This document shows, piece by piece, positions 1 to 8,698 of a DNA stretch of 33,609 nt. Source of the stretch: Bacteroidota bacterium. GTDB lineage: Bacteria > Bacteroidota > Ignavibacteria > UBA10030 > UBA8401. The notes beneath the pieces were generated by a model, which worked only from the letters and a program-made list of their open reading frames with translations, had not been told where the DNA came from and ran no database searches. The stretch is taken from contig JAGWND010000009.1 in assembly GCA_028873075.1 (NCBI GenBank), positions 1-33,609 of the forward strand, given 5' to 3'. Within the stretch, counting starts at the first letter, position 1, and each line of letters starts with the position of its first letter. The translations under genes and the position numbers were made by a program.

Positions 1-102
1 AAAGATAAAGTTGAAGGGGAGTGGATAGGATACGACAAAAAGAATAAAAAGGTATTCACAAAGAAAAGCGACGAAATTATTGAAAAAACAATCAACAAAT
101 AG
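1..102 (+). CDS. C-terminal fragment of an unidentified protein, truncated by the window edge
   Basis: Open frame from base 1: KDKVEGEWIGYDKKNKKVFTKKSDEIIEKTINK, stop TAG at 100-102. Confidence 0.45.
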   Translation, partial: KDKVEGEWIGYDKKNKKVFTKKSDEIIEKTINK

Positions 103-263
103 ATGGATCATTGTCTTAAGTTTGCTACACGAGCTACTTATAATTTAGCTTCCACGGGAAAACTTTACAGAGCCTTCGTGCTTGGCTGTCTCTTCTTCTC
201 ATCTTATTTTTCAGTCAGAGGCAGACATACATTCTTCCCGATTTTATCACAGCGAGGTGTGCG

Positions 264-359
264 ATGGTACGACAATTTATTTTCTTTGCAACAGCAACAT
301 TCATCATCAGCGGATGCACTATGAAGCAGCAAACGCCGGAATCGGTATTTTGCTTTTAA
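264..359 (+). pseudogene. Truncated duplicate of a lipoprotein gene 5' end (31 codons)
   Basis: MVRQFIFFATATFIISGCTMKQQTPESVFCF*; near-identical to the lipobox region of the 1796-3457 gene (IISGCTMKQQTPESV). Confidence 0.7.
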
Positions 360-395
360 GACGAGGCTTTAGTAGATTTCCAAAAAGGAAAAAAG

Positions 396-584
396 ATGGA
401 AACGCCCAACGTTCTTGACATTTCTAAGCTGCCTCAAAATGCTCAGTCGGCATTGCGGGAAATTTACAATCTTTTGCGGGAGAAGAAAGAAGCGCCTAAA
501 AAGAGATTTGAGTATGTTTTTTCCCACCCCGTAAAAGTTGAAAAGATCATTCTTCCTTCCCGAGAAGAACGCAATGCCCGATAA
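396..584 (+). CDS. Putative antitoxin of a VapBC-like module
   Basis: 62 aa, overlaps the start of a PIN-domain ORF by 11 nt; typical antitoxin-toxin layout. Confidence 0.6.
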   Translation: METPNVLDISKLPQNAQSALREIYNLLREKKEAPKKRFEYVFSHPVKVEKIILPSREERNAR

Positions 585-990
585 AGTCTTTATTGATACA
601 AACATTCTCATTTATGCATCACTTGAAAACTCGGGCGGCACAATAAAACGCGAACGGAGCAAAGCTGTTCTTGGCTCTTCTCAGAACGAAATCATCATAA
701 GCGTGCAAGTGCTCAACGAAAGTTATTACGTCCTTCAGCGGAACGGTTTGAGCGATGCGCTGATTCAGAAAATTCTTTCCGACATTGTCCTTTCCACGCA
801 GGTAATTCCTCTTACGGAAAATACAATCCGTTTAGCTTGGGATTTAAAGAACAAATATCAATTCTCGATTTAGGACAGCTTAATCGTAGCATCTGCGAAA
901 GAGTTCGAATGCTCAATTGTTTATTCAGAGGGCCTTCAGCATCAGCAAGTAGTGGAAGAGACACTGCGCATTATTAATCCGTTTGTATAA
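574..990 (+). pseudogene. PIN-domain toxin (VapC-like) with an in-frame TAG
   Basis: MPDKVFIDTNILIYA... PIN start; TAG at 871-873, after which the same frame continues DSLIVASAKEFECSIVYSEGLQHQQVVEETLRIINPFV*. Confidence 0.75.
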
Positions 991-1046
991 AGTAGCCCAG
1001 CCTAAACACATTAACTTCTTCGTCTTTAAAGCAACGAGGTGGAAAA

Positions 1047-1145
1047 ATGAAAAAAAATTTATTCTTCCTTGCAACTATTATCTTTATTATCAGCGGATGC
1101 ACTATGCGACAGCAAGTTCCGCATTGCTTCTGGAAAAAGGAATAA
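1047..1145 (+). pseudogene. Second truncated duplicate of the lipoprotein gene 5' end (32 codons)
   Basis: MKKNLFFLATIIFIISGCTMRQQVPHCFWKKE*; homologous to the N-terminus of the 1796-3457 product. Confidence 0.7.
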
Positions 1146-1171
1146 TTATCTTTTTACAAAGAGGTGAAAAA

Positions 1172-1402
1172 ATGTCGAATCAACAACTCATATCAACCAT
1201 TGAGCCGCTGCCGATACAAGACAAATTAGCATTGATTGAATTTTTGTCTCGCTCAGTGCAGAAAGAACTCGCCGGCAGTGAAACGATCTCTCAAGAAGCA
1301 AAACATACGCTCGCTTTGCTTCAAGACGATCCTTCGTGGCAGTTCCTTAAAGATGCAGAAGAAGACATTTATTCCGAAGCTGATATAAAAGAACGCCGAT
1401 GA
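1172..1402 (+). CDS. Putative antitoxin paired with a MazF/PemK-like toxin
   Basis: MSNQQLISTIEPLPIQDKLALIEFLSRS..., stop overlaps the start of the downstream toxin ORF (1399). Confidence 0.6.
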   Translation: MSNQQLISTIEPLPIQDKLALIEFLSRSVQKELAGSETISQEAKHTLALLQDDPSWQFLKDAEEDIYSEADIKERR

Positions 1403-1746
1403 AGTATCACCGCCGAGAAATTGTTCTCGCACAATTTCCGTTTACCGATGGAACAGGCAAGAAGCTGCGCCCTATCCTTATTCTTGTAGAGTCTTCGCGC
1501 TTGCATTCAGATTATTTGGCAATGTTTATCTCGTCACAATTATCACAAAAAGAAGAACACGACATTGTGATTGATCCAGCCAAAAAAGAATTTGCTTCTT
1601 CCGGATTATCTAAACCATCTCTTATGAAGTTGTTGAAATTAGGAACCATTTCAGAGTCGTTAATTCTTGGGACGCTGGGGGAATTGTCTAAAAGCGAATT
1701 TGTTAAGATTGTTTCATCCCTCGTTCAACTCTTGCAGGCCTCATAA
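1399..1746 (+). CDS. Type II toxin, PemK/MazF family
   Basis: N-terminal RREIVLAQFPFTDGTGKKLRPILIL is typical of PemK/MazF. Confidence 0.75.
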   Translation: MKYHRREIVLAQFPFTDGTGKKLRPILILVESSRLHSDYLAMFISSQLSQKEEHDIVIDPAKKEFASSGLSKPSLMKLLKLGTISESLILGTLGELSKSEFVKIVSSLVQLLQAS

Positions 1747-1795
1747 ATCTCTGCCTCCTTTTACTCTCGTCTCTTGTTACTAAGAAAGGTGTATA

Positions 1796-3457
1796 ATGAA
1801 AAAAGAACTGTTCTTCCTTTCAGCCATTCTTCTCATTATCAGCGGATGCACTATGAAGCAGCAAACACCCGAATCAGTGCTGGAAGCAAAGATCAAACGC
1901 TTCGCTCCGACAGAAATCACGGGCGACATAACAAAGCTTTCTTCCGGCGACAAGGCCGCGCTCGTAAAGCTTATCGAAGCGGCACACATGATGGATAGTA
2001 TTTACATTCGACAGGTGTGGAGCGGCAACGACTCGTTTTTGCACCAATTAGAAGCCGACCGGTCGCAGCTTGGAAAGCTGCGACTACAGTATTTCAAAAT
2101 CAATATGAGCCCGTGGTCGGGGCTCGATCACGATTCTGCGTTCATTCCCGGTGCGCCTCCAAAACCGGACGGCGCAAATTATTATCCGCCCGATATGACG
2201 AAGGACGATTTCAATTCATGGCTCGCCACACTTCCGCCGGACGAAAAGAAAGACGCAACCGGATTCTTTTACGTGATTCGCCTCGGACCTGAAGGAAAAC
2301 TCATGCCCGTTTCCTACGCAACAGAATACCGGACACTTCTCGAACAAGCAGCGCAGCTTCTCCGCGAAGCCGCCGCACTGACGACAAACGAAAGTCTCAG
2401 AAATTTTCTGAACCTGCGCGCCGACGCGTTTCTTTCAAACGATTATTATTCGAGCGATGTTGCGTGGATGGAACTCGACAGTCCGATTGATGTAACAATC
2501 GGTCCGTATGAAGTGTATATGGATCGGCTGTTCAATTACAAAGCGGCATTCGAAGCGTTCATCACATTACGCGACGAAGAAGAAACTGCAAAGCTCGCAA
2601 AATTTTCGTCGTATTTGCAGGAAGTTGAAAACAATCTGCCAATTGACCCGAAGTATCGAAATCCGAAATTGGGAGCGATGTCGCCGATCCGCGTCGTGGA
2701 TGAAGTGTGCACCGGCGGCGAAGCGCGCGCCGGAGTGCAAACGGCGGCGTTCAATCTTCCGAATGACGAGCGCGTGACGCGTGAAAAAGGAACGAAACGC
2801 GTGATGCTGAAAAATGTTCAGGAAGCAAAGTTCCATACTATTCTTCTGCCGATCGCCAACATCGCAATTGATCCGAGCCAGCGGAAAATGGTTTCGTTCG
2901 AGCCGTTCTTCACGCATATTCTCGCACATGAACTGATGCACGGTTTGGGACCGCATACCATCATCGTGAATGGAAAGCGGACCACCGTTCGCCAGGAAAT
3001 GAAAGAGCTTGGCTCGGCGCTTGAAGAAGCGAAAGCGGACATTTCCGGCTTGTGGATGCTGCAATTTTTAATGGACAAAGGCGTCATCGAAAAATCCTTC
3101 GAGCAGCAAATGTACGTCACGTATCTCGCCGGAGTATTTCGTTCCGTGCGATTCGGAACGAATGAAGCGCACGGAAAGGGAATGGCAATGCAATTTAATT
3201 TTCTCACTGATGATGGCGCGTTTGAGTATGATCCCGCAAGTCAAACATTCAAAGTGAATTTTGAAAAGATCAAAGACGCGGTGCGAAAACTCACGAGCGA
3301 GATTATGACAATTCAGGCGCAAGGTGATTACGCGAAAGCAAAAGCATTGCTCGGACAGTACGGTGTGATTCGTCCGCCGATGCAAAATATTCTGAACAAA
3401 CTTACTGACGTGCCGGTAGATATTGCGCCGAAGTTTCCACTGGCAGGCAATTACTGA
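1796..3457 (+). CDS. Lipoprotein, zinc peptidase of the M49 (dipeptidyl-peptidase III)-like type
   Basis: Lipobox LIISGC; HELMHGLGPH zinc-binding-like motif followed by an EEAKAD acidic motif. Confidence 0.65.
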   Translation: MKKELFFLSAILLIISGCTMKQQTPESVLEAKIKRFAPTEITGDITKLSSGDKAALVKLIEAAHMMDSIYIRQVWSGNDSFLHQLEADRSQLGKLRLQYFKINMSPWSGLDHDSAFIPGAPPKPDGANYYPPDMTKDDFNSWLATLPPDEKKDATGFFYVIRLGPEGKLMPVSYATEYRTLLEQAAQLLREAAALTTNESLRNFLNLRADAFLSNDYYSSDVAWMELDSPIDVTIGPYEVYMDRLFNYKAAFEAFITLRDEEETAKLAKFSSYLQEVENNLPIDPKYRNPKLGAMSPIRVVDEVCTGGEARAGVQTAAFNLPNDERVTREKGTKRVMLKNVQEAKFHTILLPIANIAIDPSQRKMVSFEPFFTHILAHELMHGLGPHTIIVNGKRTTVRQEMKELGSALEEAKADISGLWMLQFLMDKGVIEKSFEQQMYVTYLAGVFRSVRFGTNEAHGKGMAMQFNFLTDDGAFEYDPASQTFKVNFEKIKDAVRKLTSEIMTIQAQGDYAKAKALLGQYGVIRPPMQNILNKLTDVPVDIAPKFPLAGNY

Positions 3458-3504
3458 CAGTCAAGCCGCAGAGAACACAGAGACTTTAAATCAAATTGTT
3501 AAAA

Positions 3505-3654
3505 AGAGACATCCGAAAAACTATTTTTAAATAACGCTCTGTCGCACTGAGCGTAGTCGAAGTGCGAAAATTGGAACAACACCATGGTTCGACGGAGTTT
3601 ATCCCGCAAGGCGGGGCTCACCACGACTAACTCGAGAGTTTTTCAGATGTTTCT
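3505..3654. repeat. MITE-like dispersed repeat, copy 1 (inverted relative to the others)
   Basis: Ends AGAGACATCCGAAAAA / GTTTTTCAGATGTTTCT; core matches copies at 7056 and 18446. Confidence 0.75.
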
Positions 3655-3692
3655 AAAAAAATTCTCCGTGAACTCTGTGGCAAACAGTTGAT

Positions 3693-5003
3693 TCAAAACG
3701 TATATCCGCTTTCGCCGTGCTGGCTCAGATCGAGCCCCTCACCCTCCTCCTGCTCTTTCACGCGAATTCCGATTGTTACATCCAACAGTTTCAAAATAAT
3801 CCATGTTGCAGCAAACGAGTAGGCGATCGCTGCAACAACACTCAGCGCTTGCACGCCGAGAAGTGAGGGATTTCCGAAAACCAATCCATCGTTCCCTCCG
3901 GGATTAACCAACTTCGACGCAAACAATCCGGTCGCGAGCGCGCCGAATGTTCCGCCGACGCCGTGCACGCCGACCGCATCGAGAGAGTCGTCATATCCCA
4001 ATCTCGTTTTGACGCCGACAGCAAAATAACACAACACACCTACGCTCAAGCCGATAACAAGGGCGGAGAGCGGTCCGACAAATCCTGAAGCCGGCGTGAT
4101 GGCAACCAATCCTGCGACGGAGCCGGATGCGGCACCGAGGACTGTCGGTTTTCCGCGATGCAGCCATTCAGTAAGAAGCCACGAGACTGCCGCTGCAGCA
4201 GCAGCGATGTGAGTTGCTGTAAACGCAGATGCTGCAAGAGCACCGGATGTGAGCGCGCTGCCTGCATTGAAACCGAACCACCCGAACCACAACAGAGCGG
4301 CACCTGTCAATGTCATCGTAAGATTGTGGGGCGGAGTCAGTTCTCCTTCATGCAGCTTCCGTTTACCGATCACAAGAGCAGCAGCTAACGCCGCAATTCC
4401 CGAGCTGATGTGAACGACAAGCCCCCCGGCAAAATCGAGCGCACCGAGATTGCGAATCCAGCCACCGACTCCCCACACCCAATGGGCTATCGGCGCATAC
4501 ACAAATGTTGACCAGAGAAGAACAAAGAGGAGATATGGACCGAATTTAAACCGCTCGGCAAATGCGCCTGTGATCAACGCCGGCGTGATGACGGCGAACA
4601 TCATTTGAAACATCATAAACGCCTGATGAGGAACTGTTGCCGCGTACTCCGGATTCGGAGCGAGGCCGACACCGCGCAATCCTGCCCAGCTCAGATCGCC
4701 GATGAAATGCCTGATGTCCGGTCCAAATGCGAGACTGTAGCCAAACAAAATCCATTGAATGCTGACGATTCCAATAGCGATAAAGCTTTGCATGATGGTT
4801 CCCAAAACATTTTTCCGACGCACCATGCCGCCGTAGAACAACGCAAGCCCCGGTGTCATCAACATGACGAGCGCCGTTGAGACAAGAAGCCACGCGGTAT
4901 CTCCGGTATTGATTTGAGAAGTGCTTGGACTGTCAGCAGCGAATGCAACCTGAGAACAACCCATCATTCCAGCAACAAGAATTATCCTGCGCAAGCCTTG
5001 CAT
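3693..5003 (-). CDS. amtB: Ammonium transporter
   Basis: TAWLLVSTALVMLMTPGLALFYGGMVRRKN and GYDDSLDAVGVHGVGG, hallmark Amt motifs. Confidence 0.95.
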   Translation of the reverse strand: MQGLRRIILVAGMMGCSQVAFAADSPSTSQINTGDTAWLLVSTALVMLMTPGLALFYGGMVRRKNVLGTIMQSFIAIGIVSIQWILFGYSLAFGPDIRHFIGDLSWAGLRGVGLAPNPEYAATVPHQAFMMFQMMFAVITPALITGAFAERFKFGPYLLFVLLWSTFVYAPIAHWVWGVGGWIRNLGALDFAGGLVVHISSGIAALAAALVIGKRKLHEGELTPPHNLTMTLTGAALLWFGWFGFNAGSALTSGALAASAFTATHIAAAAAAVSWLLTEWLHRGKPTVLGAASGSVAGLVAITPASGFVGPLSALVIGLSVGVLCYFAVGVKTRLGYDDSLDAVGVHGVGGTFGALATGLFASKLVNPGGNDGLVFGNPSLLGVQALSVVAAIAYSFAATWIILKLLDVTIGIRVKEQEEGEGLDLSQHGESGYTF

Positions 5004-5064: not shown

Positions 5065-6300
5065 TCAGTACAGAAGATACTTCCCTCGTTCCTTTTCGAA
5101 CTTTTTCACTTCATCCTGCCACGTGCTCACAATTTCGTCAACAGTTTTTCCTTCGAGAATCATCTGCCGGACACGGGGCGTGCCGCTGAGAAGATCGAAC
5201 CGGCGGTTGTTGAATTTGAAATCGTTCGGGAATAAGTCATGTAATGCCGATACAACAGCGATTCCCGTTTTCACAGGAAGAAATGTATTGCGGTCGGTCA
5301 CATGAATGAAAATTCCAGAACATCGCTCATCTTTGTATTTCGGATTTGACGTAACGTGCTCAATGTCGTGCGGAGTAAATTGAATCGGAACGAACTCTAC
5401 GCCTGCAAGATGGTTGCCGTTCAATTCCTGCGCGAGCTGTTGCGCGTTGATCCACGGCGCGCCGAAATATTCGAACGGCTGCTCCGTCCCGCGCCCTTCG
5501 GAAACATTCGTCCCTTCGATCAAACACGTCCCCGGATACACGGCTGCCGTTTGCAGCGTCGGCATATTCGGCGACGGCTTGATCCACGGGAGTCCGGTTT
5601 CATCGTACCACTCGGAGCGTTTCCAGTTTTCCATTTTCACGACGGTGAGATTTGCTTTCACGCCGTTCGCCAGCCAGCCTTCGTTGTTCGCCATCGTAGC
5701 CAGTTCGCCGATGGTCATGCCGTACACAATCGGCACAGGCGCCCAGCCGACGAATGATTTCAGCGAATCGTCGCGGACCGGTCCTTCGACATCGACGCCG
5801 CGAATCGGATTCGGGCGGTCGAGCACAACGAACGGAATGTGATGTTCCGCCGCAGCTTCCATGGAAAGCATCATTGTGCTCGTGAACGTGTAGAAGCGCA
5901 CGCCGACATCCTGAATATCGTAGACGAGCACGTCAACATTGTTCAGCATCTCGCCGGTCGGCTTGTTGATTTTTCCGTAGAGCGAATAGACCGGCACGCC
6001 GGTCTTCGTATCGACACCGCTTTGAATGCCTTTACCGTCCGGCGCGTCGCCGCGAATGCCGTGCTCCGGACCGAACAACGCAACGAGCTTCACGTTCGGA
6101 TCGTGCATCAGCGCATCTGCAAGATGCATTCCGTTCGAAAGCAGCGCAGAATGATTCGTCACCAATCCAACCCGCTTCCCTTCGATGAGATCATAGTGTT
6201 TTTCAAGAAGAAGGTCGGCGCCGGTCTTCACTGCATTCGTTGAAGAATTCTGTGCTATGAGCAGTGAACAAAACGTGAATAGAGAGAGAATGATTTTCAT
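5065..6300 (-). CDS. DUF1343 family protein (NamZ-type exo-beta-N-acetylmuramidase)
   Basis: GKRVGLVTNHSA, LFGPEHGIRG, VLVYDIQDVGVRFYTF, VLDRPNPI. Confidence 0.85.
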   Translation of the reverse strand: MKIILSLFTFCSLLIAQNSSTNAVKTGADLLLEKHYDLIEGKRVGLVTNHSALLSNGMHLADALMHDPNVKLVALFGPEHGIRGDAPDGKGIQSGVDTKTGVPVYSLYGKINKPTGEMLNNVDVLVYDIQDVGVRFYTFTSTMMLSMEAAAEHHIPFVVLDRPNPIRGVDVEGPVRDDSLKSFVGWAPVPIVYGMTIGELATMANNEGWLANGVKANLTVVKMENWKRSEWYDETGLPWIKPSPNMPTLQTAAVYPGTCLIEGTNVSEGRGTEQPFEYFGAPWINAQQLAQELNGNHLAGVEFVPIQFTPHDIEHVTSNPKYKDERCSGIFIHVTDRNTFLPVKTGIAVVSALHDLFPNDFKFNNRRFDLLSGTPRVRQMILEGKTVDEIVSTWQDEVKKFEKERGKYLLY

Positions 6301-6400: not shown

Positions 6401-6943
6401 CTAACCAGTCATTATAAAACGATTGCGCACCAATGCCCACGCAGCAAGCGTCATGCCGTCCCAAATTTTTCTGTCGGAAATCAGCCGGTCTAATTCCTCC
6501 GGCGTGCGGAAAATGATCTCAAATTCCTCCGTCGCATCGGGACGCGGCTTGACAAAGTGCAAATCGCGCGCGATGAAGATTTTGCAAATCTCATCCGTAA
6601 CGCCGTTGTACGGATTGAATTCTCCCGCCGCTTCCCACGACTGCGCACGATAACCGGCTTCTTCTTCTAACTCGAGCCGCGCCATCTCTTCGTACGAATG
6701 CCCGGCTTTCACGCCGCCGCACGGAAATTCAATGCTCTCTTTGTCGCATAAGTAACGGTACTGATTGACAAGCAAAAGATTTCCATCGTGCATCACCGGC
6801 ACGATCATGCTTGCGCCTTCGGTGTGAACAAAATGATATTCCCCTTCGTACCCGTTGGGAATGCGGAACGTATCTTTCATGTACGTCCACCACGGATTTT
6901 TGTAGAGAAGCTGCGACGTGAGCTTTTTCCAGCGAGGAAGCAT
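6401..6943 (-). CDS. NUDIX hydrolase (ADP-ribose pyrophosphatase-like)
   Basis: Nudix box region EFPCGGVKAGHSYEEMARLELEEEAGY. Confidence 0.85.
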   Translation of the reverse strand: MLPRWKKLTSQLLYKNPWWTYMKDTFRIPNGYEGEYHFVHTEGASMIVPVMHDGNLLLVNQYRYLCDKESIEFPCGGVKAGHSYEEMARLELEEEAGYRAQSWEAAGEFNPYNGVTDEICKIFIARDLHFVKPRPDATEEFEIIFRTPEELDRLISDRKIWDGMTLAAWALVRNRFIMTG

Positions 6944-7205: not shown

Positions 7206-7625
7206 TTATATCAACTCGCTTTCGGGAAAGAAAAATGCGACTTCAATTTTTCCGTTCTCGGGAGAATCGGAGCCGTGCACGATATTTTCTCCTTTATTGT
7301 CCGCGAATAATTTCCGGATCGTTCCCGGTTCGGCATCCTTCGGATCGGTTGCGCCGATGAGTGCGCGATAGTCGGCGACAGCGTTTTCTTTTTGCAGCGC
7401 CACCGGCACGCACGGACCGGAAGTCATAAACTCGACAAGACCGTTGTAAAACGGCTTGCCTTTATGAACGGCATAAAAGGCGCCCGCTTCTTCTTTCGTC
7501 AGCCGGATTTGTTTCAAGCCGAGAACTTTGAATCCTGCCTTTTGAATTCGTGACAGCACTTCGCCTTGAAGATTTTTCCGCACACAATCGGGTTTCAAAA
7601 TGCACAATGTTCGCTCGACAGACAT
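7206..7625 (-). CDS. ndk: Nucleoside diphosphate kinase
   Basis: [18 protein letters not shown]..., [20 protein letters not shown]. Confidence 0.95.
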
Positions 7626-7666
7626 AGGATTGTAGATGAGTGTAGATTTAAAATTAGTGATTTAGG

Positions 7667-8698
7667 TTAACTTTTTCGCTTTGAAGTTTTCTTTCCCTTC
7701 GGAAAAGCTTTCTTCACACGCGCGGGCTTCTTTGAAGACTTCCTCACTGCAGTTTTTCCGTGCCGCCTTTGGCGCCATGTCCCATTTCGCGATTTTTTCG
7801 CCAGTAAGAGCTTCATCGTCTCGCCGATCAATGCCGGGTTGTCGCACACGATGATTCCCGCATTTGCCATCGCTTCCATTTTTTCCGCCGCCGTGCCTTT
7901 GCCGCCGGCAATGATCGCGCCGGCATGTCCCATGCGCCGCCCCGGAGGCGCGGTGCGTCCTGCAATGAAACCGACAACCGGTTTCTTGACATGATTCTTG
8001 ATGAACTCGGCGGCTTCCTCCTCCGCAGTCCCGCCGATCTCGCCGATCATAATGATCGCGTCGGTCCCGTCATCGTCGTTGAACAGCCGAATCGCATCAA
8101 TGAAGCGCGTGCCGACCACCGGATCGCCGCCGATGCCGATGCATGTCGACTGGCCGATGCCGCGCTCCGTCAATTGCCACACGGCCTCGTACGTCAGTGT
8201 TCCGCTGCGGGAGATAACACCGACACGCCCCGGCTTGTGGATGAATCCCGGCATGATACCGACTTTACATTCTCCCGGCGTGATAATGCCCGGACAATTC
8301 GGTCCGATCAACCGAACCCCGCTGTGGCGTGACCTCACATCATCATAGACCGCAAGCATATCTTTCGTCGGAATACCTTCAGTGATACACACGACAAGCC
8401 GAATGCCCGTGTCCGCCGCTTCCATCACCGCATCGGCAGCAAATGCCGCAGGCACGAAAATGACCGACGTGTCGGCGCCTTCGGCTGCGACAGCGTCGCT
8501 CACCGTGTTGAACACCGGCACCGCACGTTCAAACTGATCTTTCTCGTTTCCTTTGTAGAGCGTTCCGCCTTTCCCCGGCGTCACGCCGGCGACGACATTC
8601 GTTCCGTACAGAAGCATCTGCGACGTGTGAAAAGTTCCCTCGCCACCGGTAATTCCCTGCACAACAATTCGTGACTTCTTATTGACTAAAATACTCAT
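7667..8698 (-). CDS. sucD: Succinyl-CoA ligase alpha subunit with a basic C-terminal tail
   Basis: [52 protein letters not shown]. Confidence 0.93.

What the first reader, a model, noticed from the sequence alone, without database searches (positions are those of the whole stretch)
264..1890. Two toxin-antitoxin modules each preceded by a duplicate of the target gene's 5' end
The lipoprotein leader occurs three times: MVRQFIFFATATFIISGCTMKQQTPESV (264), MKKNLFFLATIIFIISGCTMRQQVP (1047) and MKKELFFLSAILLIISGCTMKQQTPESV (1796, full-length gene). The nucleotide match is strong, e.g. ATCAGCGGATGCACTATGAAGCAGCAAAC. The order is leader, PIN module, leader, MazF module, leader plus intact gene. It looks like two successive insertions that each regenerated the 5' end of the lipoprotein gene, a strategy known for integrative elements but not one I know for bare TA modules.
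Basis: partly seen in the sequence, partly recalled or inferred. Interest (0 to 1): 0.7.

Follow-up and report, generated by a model that had tools for sequence, protein, structure and literature searches.

The report
Toxin-antitoxin arrays between duplicated gene ends
Two small toxin-antitoxin gene pairs sit inside the start of a lipoprotein gene, separated by divergent copies of that start, and the same layout recurs at the starts or ends of unrelated genes in related bacteria, which suggests a recurring way for such addiction genes to settle in a chromosome without a transposase.

Summary
Three divergent copies of one gene start (264, 1047, 1796) alternate with a PIN module, whose toxin has an in-frame stop, and an intact MazF/PemK module. 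A sister species supplies the empty site. There, leader A and its 5' flank (window 180-345, 93-95% identical) run straight into the gene body, with no TA genes. No gene-body remnants and no other orthologue with repeated leaders were found, so decayed tandem genes are unlikely.

The leader now fused to the gene (C) is not a copy of A. It is a different allele over its first ~37 nt and its 5' UTR, joined in a 45-nt near-identical stretch.

The layout is not unique. At 106 PIN loci in the order, gene-end duplications span the toxin in 7, against 24 of 6807 random intervals. Nine other loci show it at gene starts or ends, two as clear leader-TA-leader-TA-gene arrays.

Best explanation: one-sided homologous recombination with relatives' DNA, with addiction keeping the additive products. 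The mechanism is inferred. Closest precedents are restriction-modification insertion with long target duplication, and ICE/IME replacement of prfC/dusA 5' ends.

The parts
180..345 (+). native 5' flank (84 nt) and first 82 nt of the gene, leader A, left stranded upstream of the inserts
   Evidence: 95% and 93% identical to the two intact loci of the sister species, where it runs on into the gene body (alignment)
264..359 (+). short ORF left of leader A (31 aa: signal peptide, lipobox, stop after 13 further residues)
   Evidence: ORF list; leader peptide identical to the sister's gene over its first 24 residues
396..584 (+). putative antitoxin of module 1 (62 aa, no known family)
   Evidence: ORF upstream of and overlapping the PIN gene; no Pfam or NCBIfam hit
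574..990 (+). PIN-domain toxin gene of module 1, interrupted by in-frame TAG at 871-873
   Evidence: Pfam PIN 1.2e-13 when read through; stop counted by the genome search
1010..1145 (+). leader B: second copy of the gene 5' end with part of the 5' UTR; short ORF 1047-1145 (32 aa)
   Evidence: 80% to leader C over 70 nt; 5' UTR similar to that of A, shuffle p=0.003
1172..1402 (+). putative antitoxin of module 2 (76 aa)
   Evidence: ORF overlapping the toxin start by 4 nt; weak, sub-threshold VapB15-family resemblance (0.017)
1399..1746 (+). MazF/PemK-like toxin of module 2 (115 aa, intact)
   Evidence: Pfam PemK_toxin 2.9e-9, above cut-off
1796..1832 (+). leader C, imported part: first ~37 nt of the working gene
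   Evidence: differs strongly from native leader A and from both sister loci, while the rest of the gene is 86-91% identical to them
1833..1877 (+). 45-nt near-identical join region, counterpart of 301-345 (91%)
1796..3457 (+). intact target gene: 553-aa lipoprotein with partial Peptidase_M49 similarity
   Evidence: Pfam PF03571 1e-13; single-copy orthologues in relatives

Best explanation
The TA modules entered the 5' end of the lipoprotein gene by recombination with DNA of related bacteria in which a TA module lies directly upstream of the same gene. On the gene side the incoming DNA crossed over inside the shared gene sequence, within a 45-nt near-identical stretch just after the signal-peptide codons, so the gene kept working with an imported leader (C). 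This left a short truncated native leader (A) as a scar. Leader B is the scar of the same kind of event between the two modules, either here or in the donor. Products that add a module survive because losing a resident TA module is punished by its stable toxin, so successive events build arrays of the form gene end, TA, gene end, TA, gene. Shown: the empty site in the sister, the native status of A, the foreign status of C, recurrence at unrelated genes and at both 5' and 3' ends, coding-type divergence between copies, and different TA modules at one orthologous gene end in two congeners. Inferred: the one-sided recombination step, the donor, the order of events, and selection by addiction.
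For: Empty site in the sister (two contigs) with A joined to the body, and 346-1832 absent. A is 93-95% identical to the sister over 166 nt although now untranslated into the gene, whereas C is only ~68-73% identical to the native leader while the body is 86-91%; so C was not copied from A. Join region of 45 nt. B/C differences spare codon position 2 (1 of 14). Pooled over eight loci, one comparison each, mismatches by codon position are 37/25/50, with position-2 depletion p=0.007: the copies diverged while coding, as alleles do. PIN loci are spanned by direct repeats in 24 of 106 versus 107 of 2710 random intervals, and by gene-end duplications in 7 of 106 versus 24 of 6807. Parallel arrays: L240, four copies of a signal-peptide start interleaved with TA-like pairs; L257, three copies interleaved with two PIN modules. 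3'-end versions: L149, L229, L287, L294. The L294 insertion is shared by two species, with the displaced copy 88% conserved. Allelic modules: PIN in G002 and TumE in G000 at the 3' end of the same FG-GAP gene. No recombinase, attC or other Rfam family in the insert, and no junction motif shared between loci.
Against: No donor genome with TA directly upstream of leader C was found; 98 genomes of the order hold no DNA relative of the insert. In L210 the native gene context is intact and the gene-start copy sits on the far side of the TA module, beyond a neighbour gene, so not every case is an end replacement. In L257, L287 and L245 displaced copies carry a 16-nt palindromic insert that this model does not explain. 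The codon-position signal is modest and the comparisons are not fully independent. The left-junction microhomology cannot be read without the donor. The window case itself rests on one MAG contig.
Confidence: 0.5

Rival explanations
1. Each unit is a small non-autonomous integrative cassette, like a CIME, carrying its own version of the gene end as an att site and integrated by a tyrosine recombinase acting in trans. Tandem accretion at the same site gives the array, and the attR side supplies a new 5' end, as SXT does for prfC and IMEVchUSA3 for dusA.
For: The architecture (attL, cargo, att, cargo, attR with a divergent new N-terminus) matches closely. For dusA the new 5' coding sequence shares 61% over 35 residues with the native one (PMC8409611). 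Both copies A and B break at similar positions, and both units are about 750-780 nt.
Against: No recombinase gene in the inserts. No junction motif shared between loci (1 of 36 pairs below p=0.02 on one side, 2 of 36 on the other and both within one locus). Targets differ (lipoprotein, asd, PckA-like gene, ABC genes, FG-GAP gene) and both ends of genes are used. No virus contig holds the core.
Confidence: 0.22
2. Insertion with long target duplication, as proposed for restriction-modification modules: the module inserted by itself and duplicated about 45-100 nt of the gene end, and the copies drifted apart afterwards.
For: Long, variable duplications of the order of 100 bp are reported for RM systems (PMC3874152). 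L210 (91%) and L203 (97%, same genus) have flanking copies similar enough to fit.
Against: In the window the stranded copy A is still 93-95% identical to the sister's gene, while the working leader C has changed far more than the body and has a different 5' UTR. Duplication followed by drift predicts the opposite.
Confidence: 0.15
3. Three tandem copies of the whole gene existed, and the TA genes replaced the bodies of the first two.
For: All three leaders look like real gene starts, with ribosome-binding sites and coding-type divergence.
Against: Sister species single-copy at the locus on both contigs; no body remnants in either insert; no repeated leader upstream of about 80 orthologues; truncation at nearly the same codon twice would be a coincidence.
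Confidence: 0.06
4. Assembly or binning artefact that joined strain variants.
For: The genome is a fragmented MAG of 347 contigs, and the contig starts only 179 nt before the homologous segment.
Against: The copies are short and divergent, and no exact overlap longer than about 29 nt could join them. The same architecture is found in several independent MAGs, and one insertion is shared by two species.
Confidence: 0.04

Closest known systems
Restriction-modification systems inserted with long and variable target duplication (Nobusato et al. 2000; Furuta et al. 2010; reviewed in PMC3874152)
   Same: An addiction module without transposase or integrase is found inserted in the chromosome between direct repeats of order 50-200 bp derived from the target.
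   Different: Here the cargo is TA modules in arrays, the repeats are gene ends, and the copies are divergent alleles rather than a plain duplication. The review states the phenomenon for RM systems, not for TA systems.
ICE SXT/R391 in prfC and IMEVchUSA3 in dusA (PMC8409611)
   Same: Insertion near the start of a gene strands the native start and supplies a new promoter and a divergent N-terminus that keeps the gene expressed.
   Different: No recombinase, no mobilisation genes, inserts of about 0.75 kb holding only a TA pair, many different target genes and both ends of genes.
TA-bearing dif (pdif) modules of Acinetobacter plasmids and cassette arrays of chromosomal integrons
   Same: Tandem small TA cassettes separated by a repeated sequence.
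   Different: The repeat is the coding 5' or 3' end of the local host gene and differs at every locus; no attC was recognised by Rfam.
CIMEs and accretion in integrative elements (from general knowledge)
   Same: Recombinase-less segments between att sites stacked in one gene end.
   Different: No related autonomous element and no common att core were found.

Membership tests
VapBC-like type II TA (PIN toxin) | two-gene operon with a PIN-domain toxin | tested here: met
   PF01850 1.2e-13 with a 62-aa ORF overlapping upstream; the antitoxin family was not recognised
VapBC-like type II TA (PIN toxin) | intact toxin reading frame | tested here: not met
   in-frame TAG at 871-873
MazEF/PemIK type II TA | PemK/MazF toxin with small upstream partner gene | tested here: met
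   PF02452 2.9e-9; 76-aa ORF overlapping by 4 nt
Integrative element with 5'-end replacement (SXT/prfC, IME/dusA type) | own or recognisable site-specific recombinase | tested here: not met
   none among ORFs of the insert or its surroundings
Integrative element with 5'-end replacement (SXT/prfC, IME/dusA type) | divergent new gene start supplied by the insert, native start stranded | tested here: met
Integrative element with 5'-end replacement (SXT/prfC, IME/dusA type) | conserved att core across insertions | tested here: not met
   no shared junction motif across loci
Insertion with long target duplication | flanking direct repeats of order 100 bp absent from the empty site | tested here: met
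Insertion with long target duplication | repeats are copies of one target sequence | tested here: not met
   C is a different allele from native A over its first 37 nt and its 5' UTR
Integron cassette array | attC sites and an integron integrase | tested here: not met
   no Rfam match in window 1-3600 or in six other loci apart from one tRNA; no integrase among the ORFs of the window
dif-module (XerCD) cassette | 28-bp Xer sites flanking the module | not tested
   the repeats are coding gene starts and were not scored against a Xer profile

The most novel reading that the evidence does not exclude
A recombinase-independent system of TA cassettes: allelic TA modules next to gene ends spread between species by one-sided homologous recombination, and addiction converts what would be allele replacement into stacking, so that arrays of gene end and TA are a fossil record of successive transfers. 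The same process would explain the long target duplications of restriction-modification modules, whose mechanism is open.
Probability: 0.3. Interest if true: 0.8.

Novelty: new variant of a known kind. Interest (0 to 1): 0.6.

Why it matters
How chromosomal TA modules that have no transposase or integrase move and accumulate is an open question. The window supplies an insertion with an empty site in a sister species and shows that the inserted side brought its own divergent gene start. The survey shows that this is a recurrent pattern (about 20-fold enrichment of gene-end duplications around PIN toxins in one bacterial order), at both ends of genes and sometimes in arrays. It makes a mechanism testable: addiction selecting additive products of inter-species recombination. 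It links TA modules to the unexplained long target duplications of restriction-modification systems.

Tried and rejected
Search for a donor: DNA of the insert in 98 genomes of the order, PemK protein in viral contigs, the 18-nt core in 391 genomes and in viral contigs: nothing beyond the sister; two one-mismatch matches were chance. Decayed tandem genes: rejected. Plain target duplication: rejected for the window. Common junction motif: not found. The weak similarity of the sequence after leaders A and B (p about 0.01 global, 0.33 local) was judged insufficient. A 16-17-nt palindrome inside displaced copies of three other loci looked like a possible signature but is a dispersed repeat in 29 of 98 genomes and absent from the window's genus. 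Several PIN-spanning repeats (for example L214, L260, L205, L268) are intergenic repeats, not gene ends, and are not counted as cases. Promoter and terminator scan of 1-3800 gave no more than chance.

Full report
What was checked. The window holds three in-register copies of one gene start, at 263-332, 1046-1115 and 1795-1864. They alternate with two small two-gene modules and end in an intact 553-aa gene. Pfam identifies the first toxin as PIN (1.2e-13 when its in-frame TAG at 871-873 is read through), the second as PemK/MazF-like (2.9e-9) and the gene as a partial Peptidase_M49 relative. No fourth copy exists in the genome. The shared 18-nt core is found exactly in only two of 391 genomes of the class, this one and its sister.

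The empty site. A congener, G001 (MAG DBS2-5.bin33 by its contig lengths), carries the gene on two contigs that are 89% identical to each other. In both, the native 5' flank and a leader of type A run straight into the gene body. Window 180-345 is 95% and 93% identical to them and window 1833-3441 is 86-91% identical. Window 346-1832 is absent, and no TA gene is present between flank and gene. Leader A is therefore the native 5' end, stranded by insertion. Among about 80 further orthologues with upstream sequence, none has a repeated leader, and the two inserts contain no remnants of the gene body.

The working leader is foreign. A plain target duplication would leave the working copy native. 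Instead, C differs from A at 24 of 81 leader positions and has an unrelated 5' UTR, while A still matches the sister almost exactly. A and C are near-identical only over 45 nt (301-345 and 1833-1877), which is where the join must lie. Leader B resembles A in its 5' UTR (shuffle p=0.003) and C in its coding part. B/C differences spare second codon positions (1 of 14), as expected if both once were functional gene starts.

The pattern is recurrent. PIN toxins were located across the 98 held genomes of the order, and stretches around 106 of them were examined. Direct repeats of at least 35 nt span the toxin in 24 loci, against 107 of 2710 random intervals in the same stretches. Restricting to repeats in which one copy is the terminal part of an ORF of at least 150 codons and the other is outside a gene gives 7 of 106 against 24 of 6807 (Fisher p about 3e-7; intervals overlap, so the p value is nominal). 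One of the seven (L245) is doubtful, because the ORF that qualifies there is the PIN ORF itself, and L257 is counted twice. Counting by eye, including shorter or mis-started ORFs, nine loci besides the window show gene-end copies around TA modules. Gene starts: L210, L240, L244, L250, L257. Gene ends: L149, L229, L287, L294.

Parallel arrays. In L240 four copies of the signal-peptide start of an outer-membrane-like protein alternate with a PIN pair, DUF2283 and DUF6883/DUF4926 genes and another small pair, and the last copy is fused to the gene. In L257 three copies of a signal-peptide start alternate with two PIN modules. L250 has four copies of a signal-peptide leader between small gene pairs, although the copy nearest the next gene is not fused to it. 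These are the same layout as the window in other genera and families.

3' versions, persistence and hotspot. In G002, of the window's genus, a PIN module lies between two copies of the last ~110 nt of an FG-GAP gene, both ending on the same stop codon, with a third partial copy beyond. At the orthologous gene end, the window's own genome has a TumE-family module instead. The L294 insertion is shared by G058 and G057, with displaced copy, TA and working end all 88-90% identical. G060 has the TA module, and three congeners (G056, G031, G059) have the gene without a TA match. Insertions are thus stable through speciation and not assembly artefacts.

Mechanism. Shown: insertion, native A, foreign C, recurrence at unrelated genes and at both ends, and coding-type divergence between copies (pooled 37/25/50 by codon position, one comparison per locus). 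Inferred: incoming DNA from a relative with a TA module beside the same gene crosses over inside the gene on one side and is joined illegitimately on the other, duplicating the gene end. Addiction then favours products that add a module over those that lose one. This accounts for arrays, divergent copies, the use of both gene ends, the absence of a recombinase, and different modules at one site in sister species. It does not account for L210, where the native gene context is intact and the copied start lies beyond a neighbour gene, nor for the 16-nt palindrome inside displaced copies in L257, L287 and L245. A recombinase acting in trans on small cassettes remains possible. Against it are the lack of a shared junction motif and the variety of targets.

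Comparison with what is known. Restriction-modification systems, also addiction modules, are reported to insert with long and variable target duplications of the order of 100 bp, unlinked to any mobile element (PMC3874152; PMC3031569). Searches of the held library for TA together with target duplication found no report of this for TA modules, but most subscription papers are not held. Replacement of a gene's 5' end by a divergent one is known for SXT in prfC and an IME in dusA, where the new coding sequence shares 61% over 35 residues with the native one (PMC8409611). The window works like these but lacks their defining recombinase and att core, so it is not filed as a member. I class it as a new variant of a known kind.

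Limits. The window case rests on one MAG contig that starts 179 nt before the homologous segment, and synteny with the sister is broken both upstream of 180 and downstream of 3446. No donor was found. The survey used one toxin family in one order.

Noticed in passing
L257:5744-5759 and 6604-6619 (-), L287:5522-5537, L245:1650-1665 and 2579-2594: A 16-17-nt near-palindrome (consensus about CTCTACGAGTCGTAGAC) is dispersed in 29 of 98 genomes of the order, up to about 30 copies each, and absent from the window's genus. In three TA loci it sits inside displaced gene-end copies, with an uninterrupted copy nearby for L257 and L287.
   Followed up: partly
L317:1475-1550: A tRNA-like sequence interrupted by the same palindrome lies about 300 nt from an intact tRNA-Ala gene (L317:1130-1203); only the latter is predicted as a tRNA.
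   Followed up: partly
L342:709-1459 (window's own genome, contig C189): A TumE-family module sits at the 3' end of an FG-GAP gene, where congener G002 has a PIN module between duplicated gene ends.
   Followed up: partly
window:871-873: In-frame TAG interrupts the PIN toxin gene, so module 1 may be dead.
   Followed up: yes
window:1-179 and 3447-3692: Synteny with the sister breaks just upstream of the homologous 5' flank and just after the gene; the neighbouring DUF2723-like gene of the sister has no close match in this genome.
   Followed up: partly
L051 and L052: The sister MAG holds two 89%-identical versions of the locus on separate contigs, which suggests a mixed bin of two related populations.
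   Followed up: no
L203:4737-4807 and 5699-5769: In the sister genome a PIN gene lies between 97%-identical 71-nt repeats, one of them inside the neighbouring 312-aa ORF; this looks like a recent case of plain duplication.
   Followed up: no
L208:5498-5876 and 7435-7813: A 379-nt duplication (85%) involving the 3' end of a long ORF, not spanning a PIN gene.
   Followed up: no
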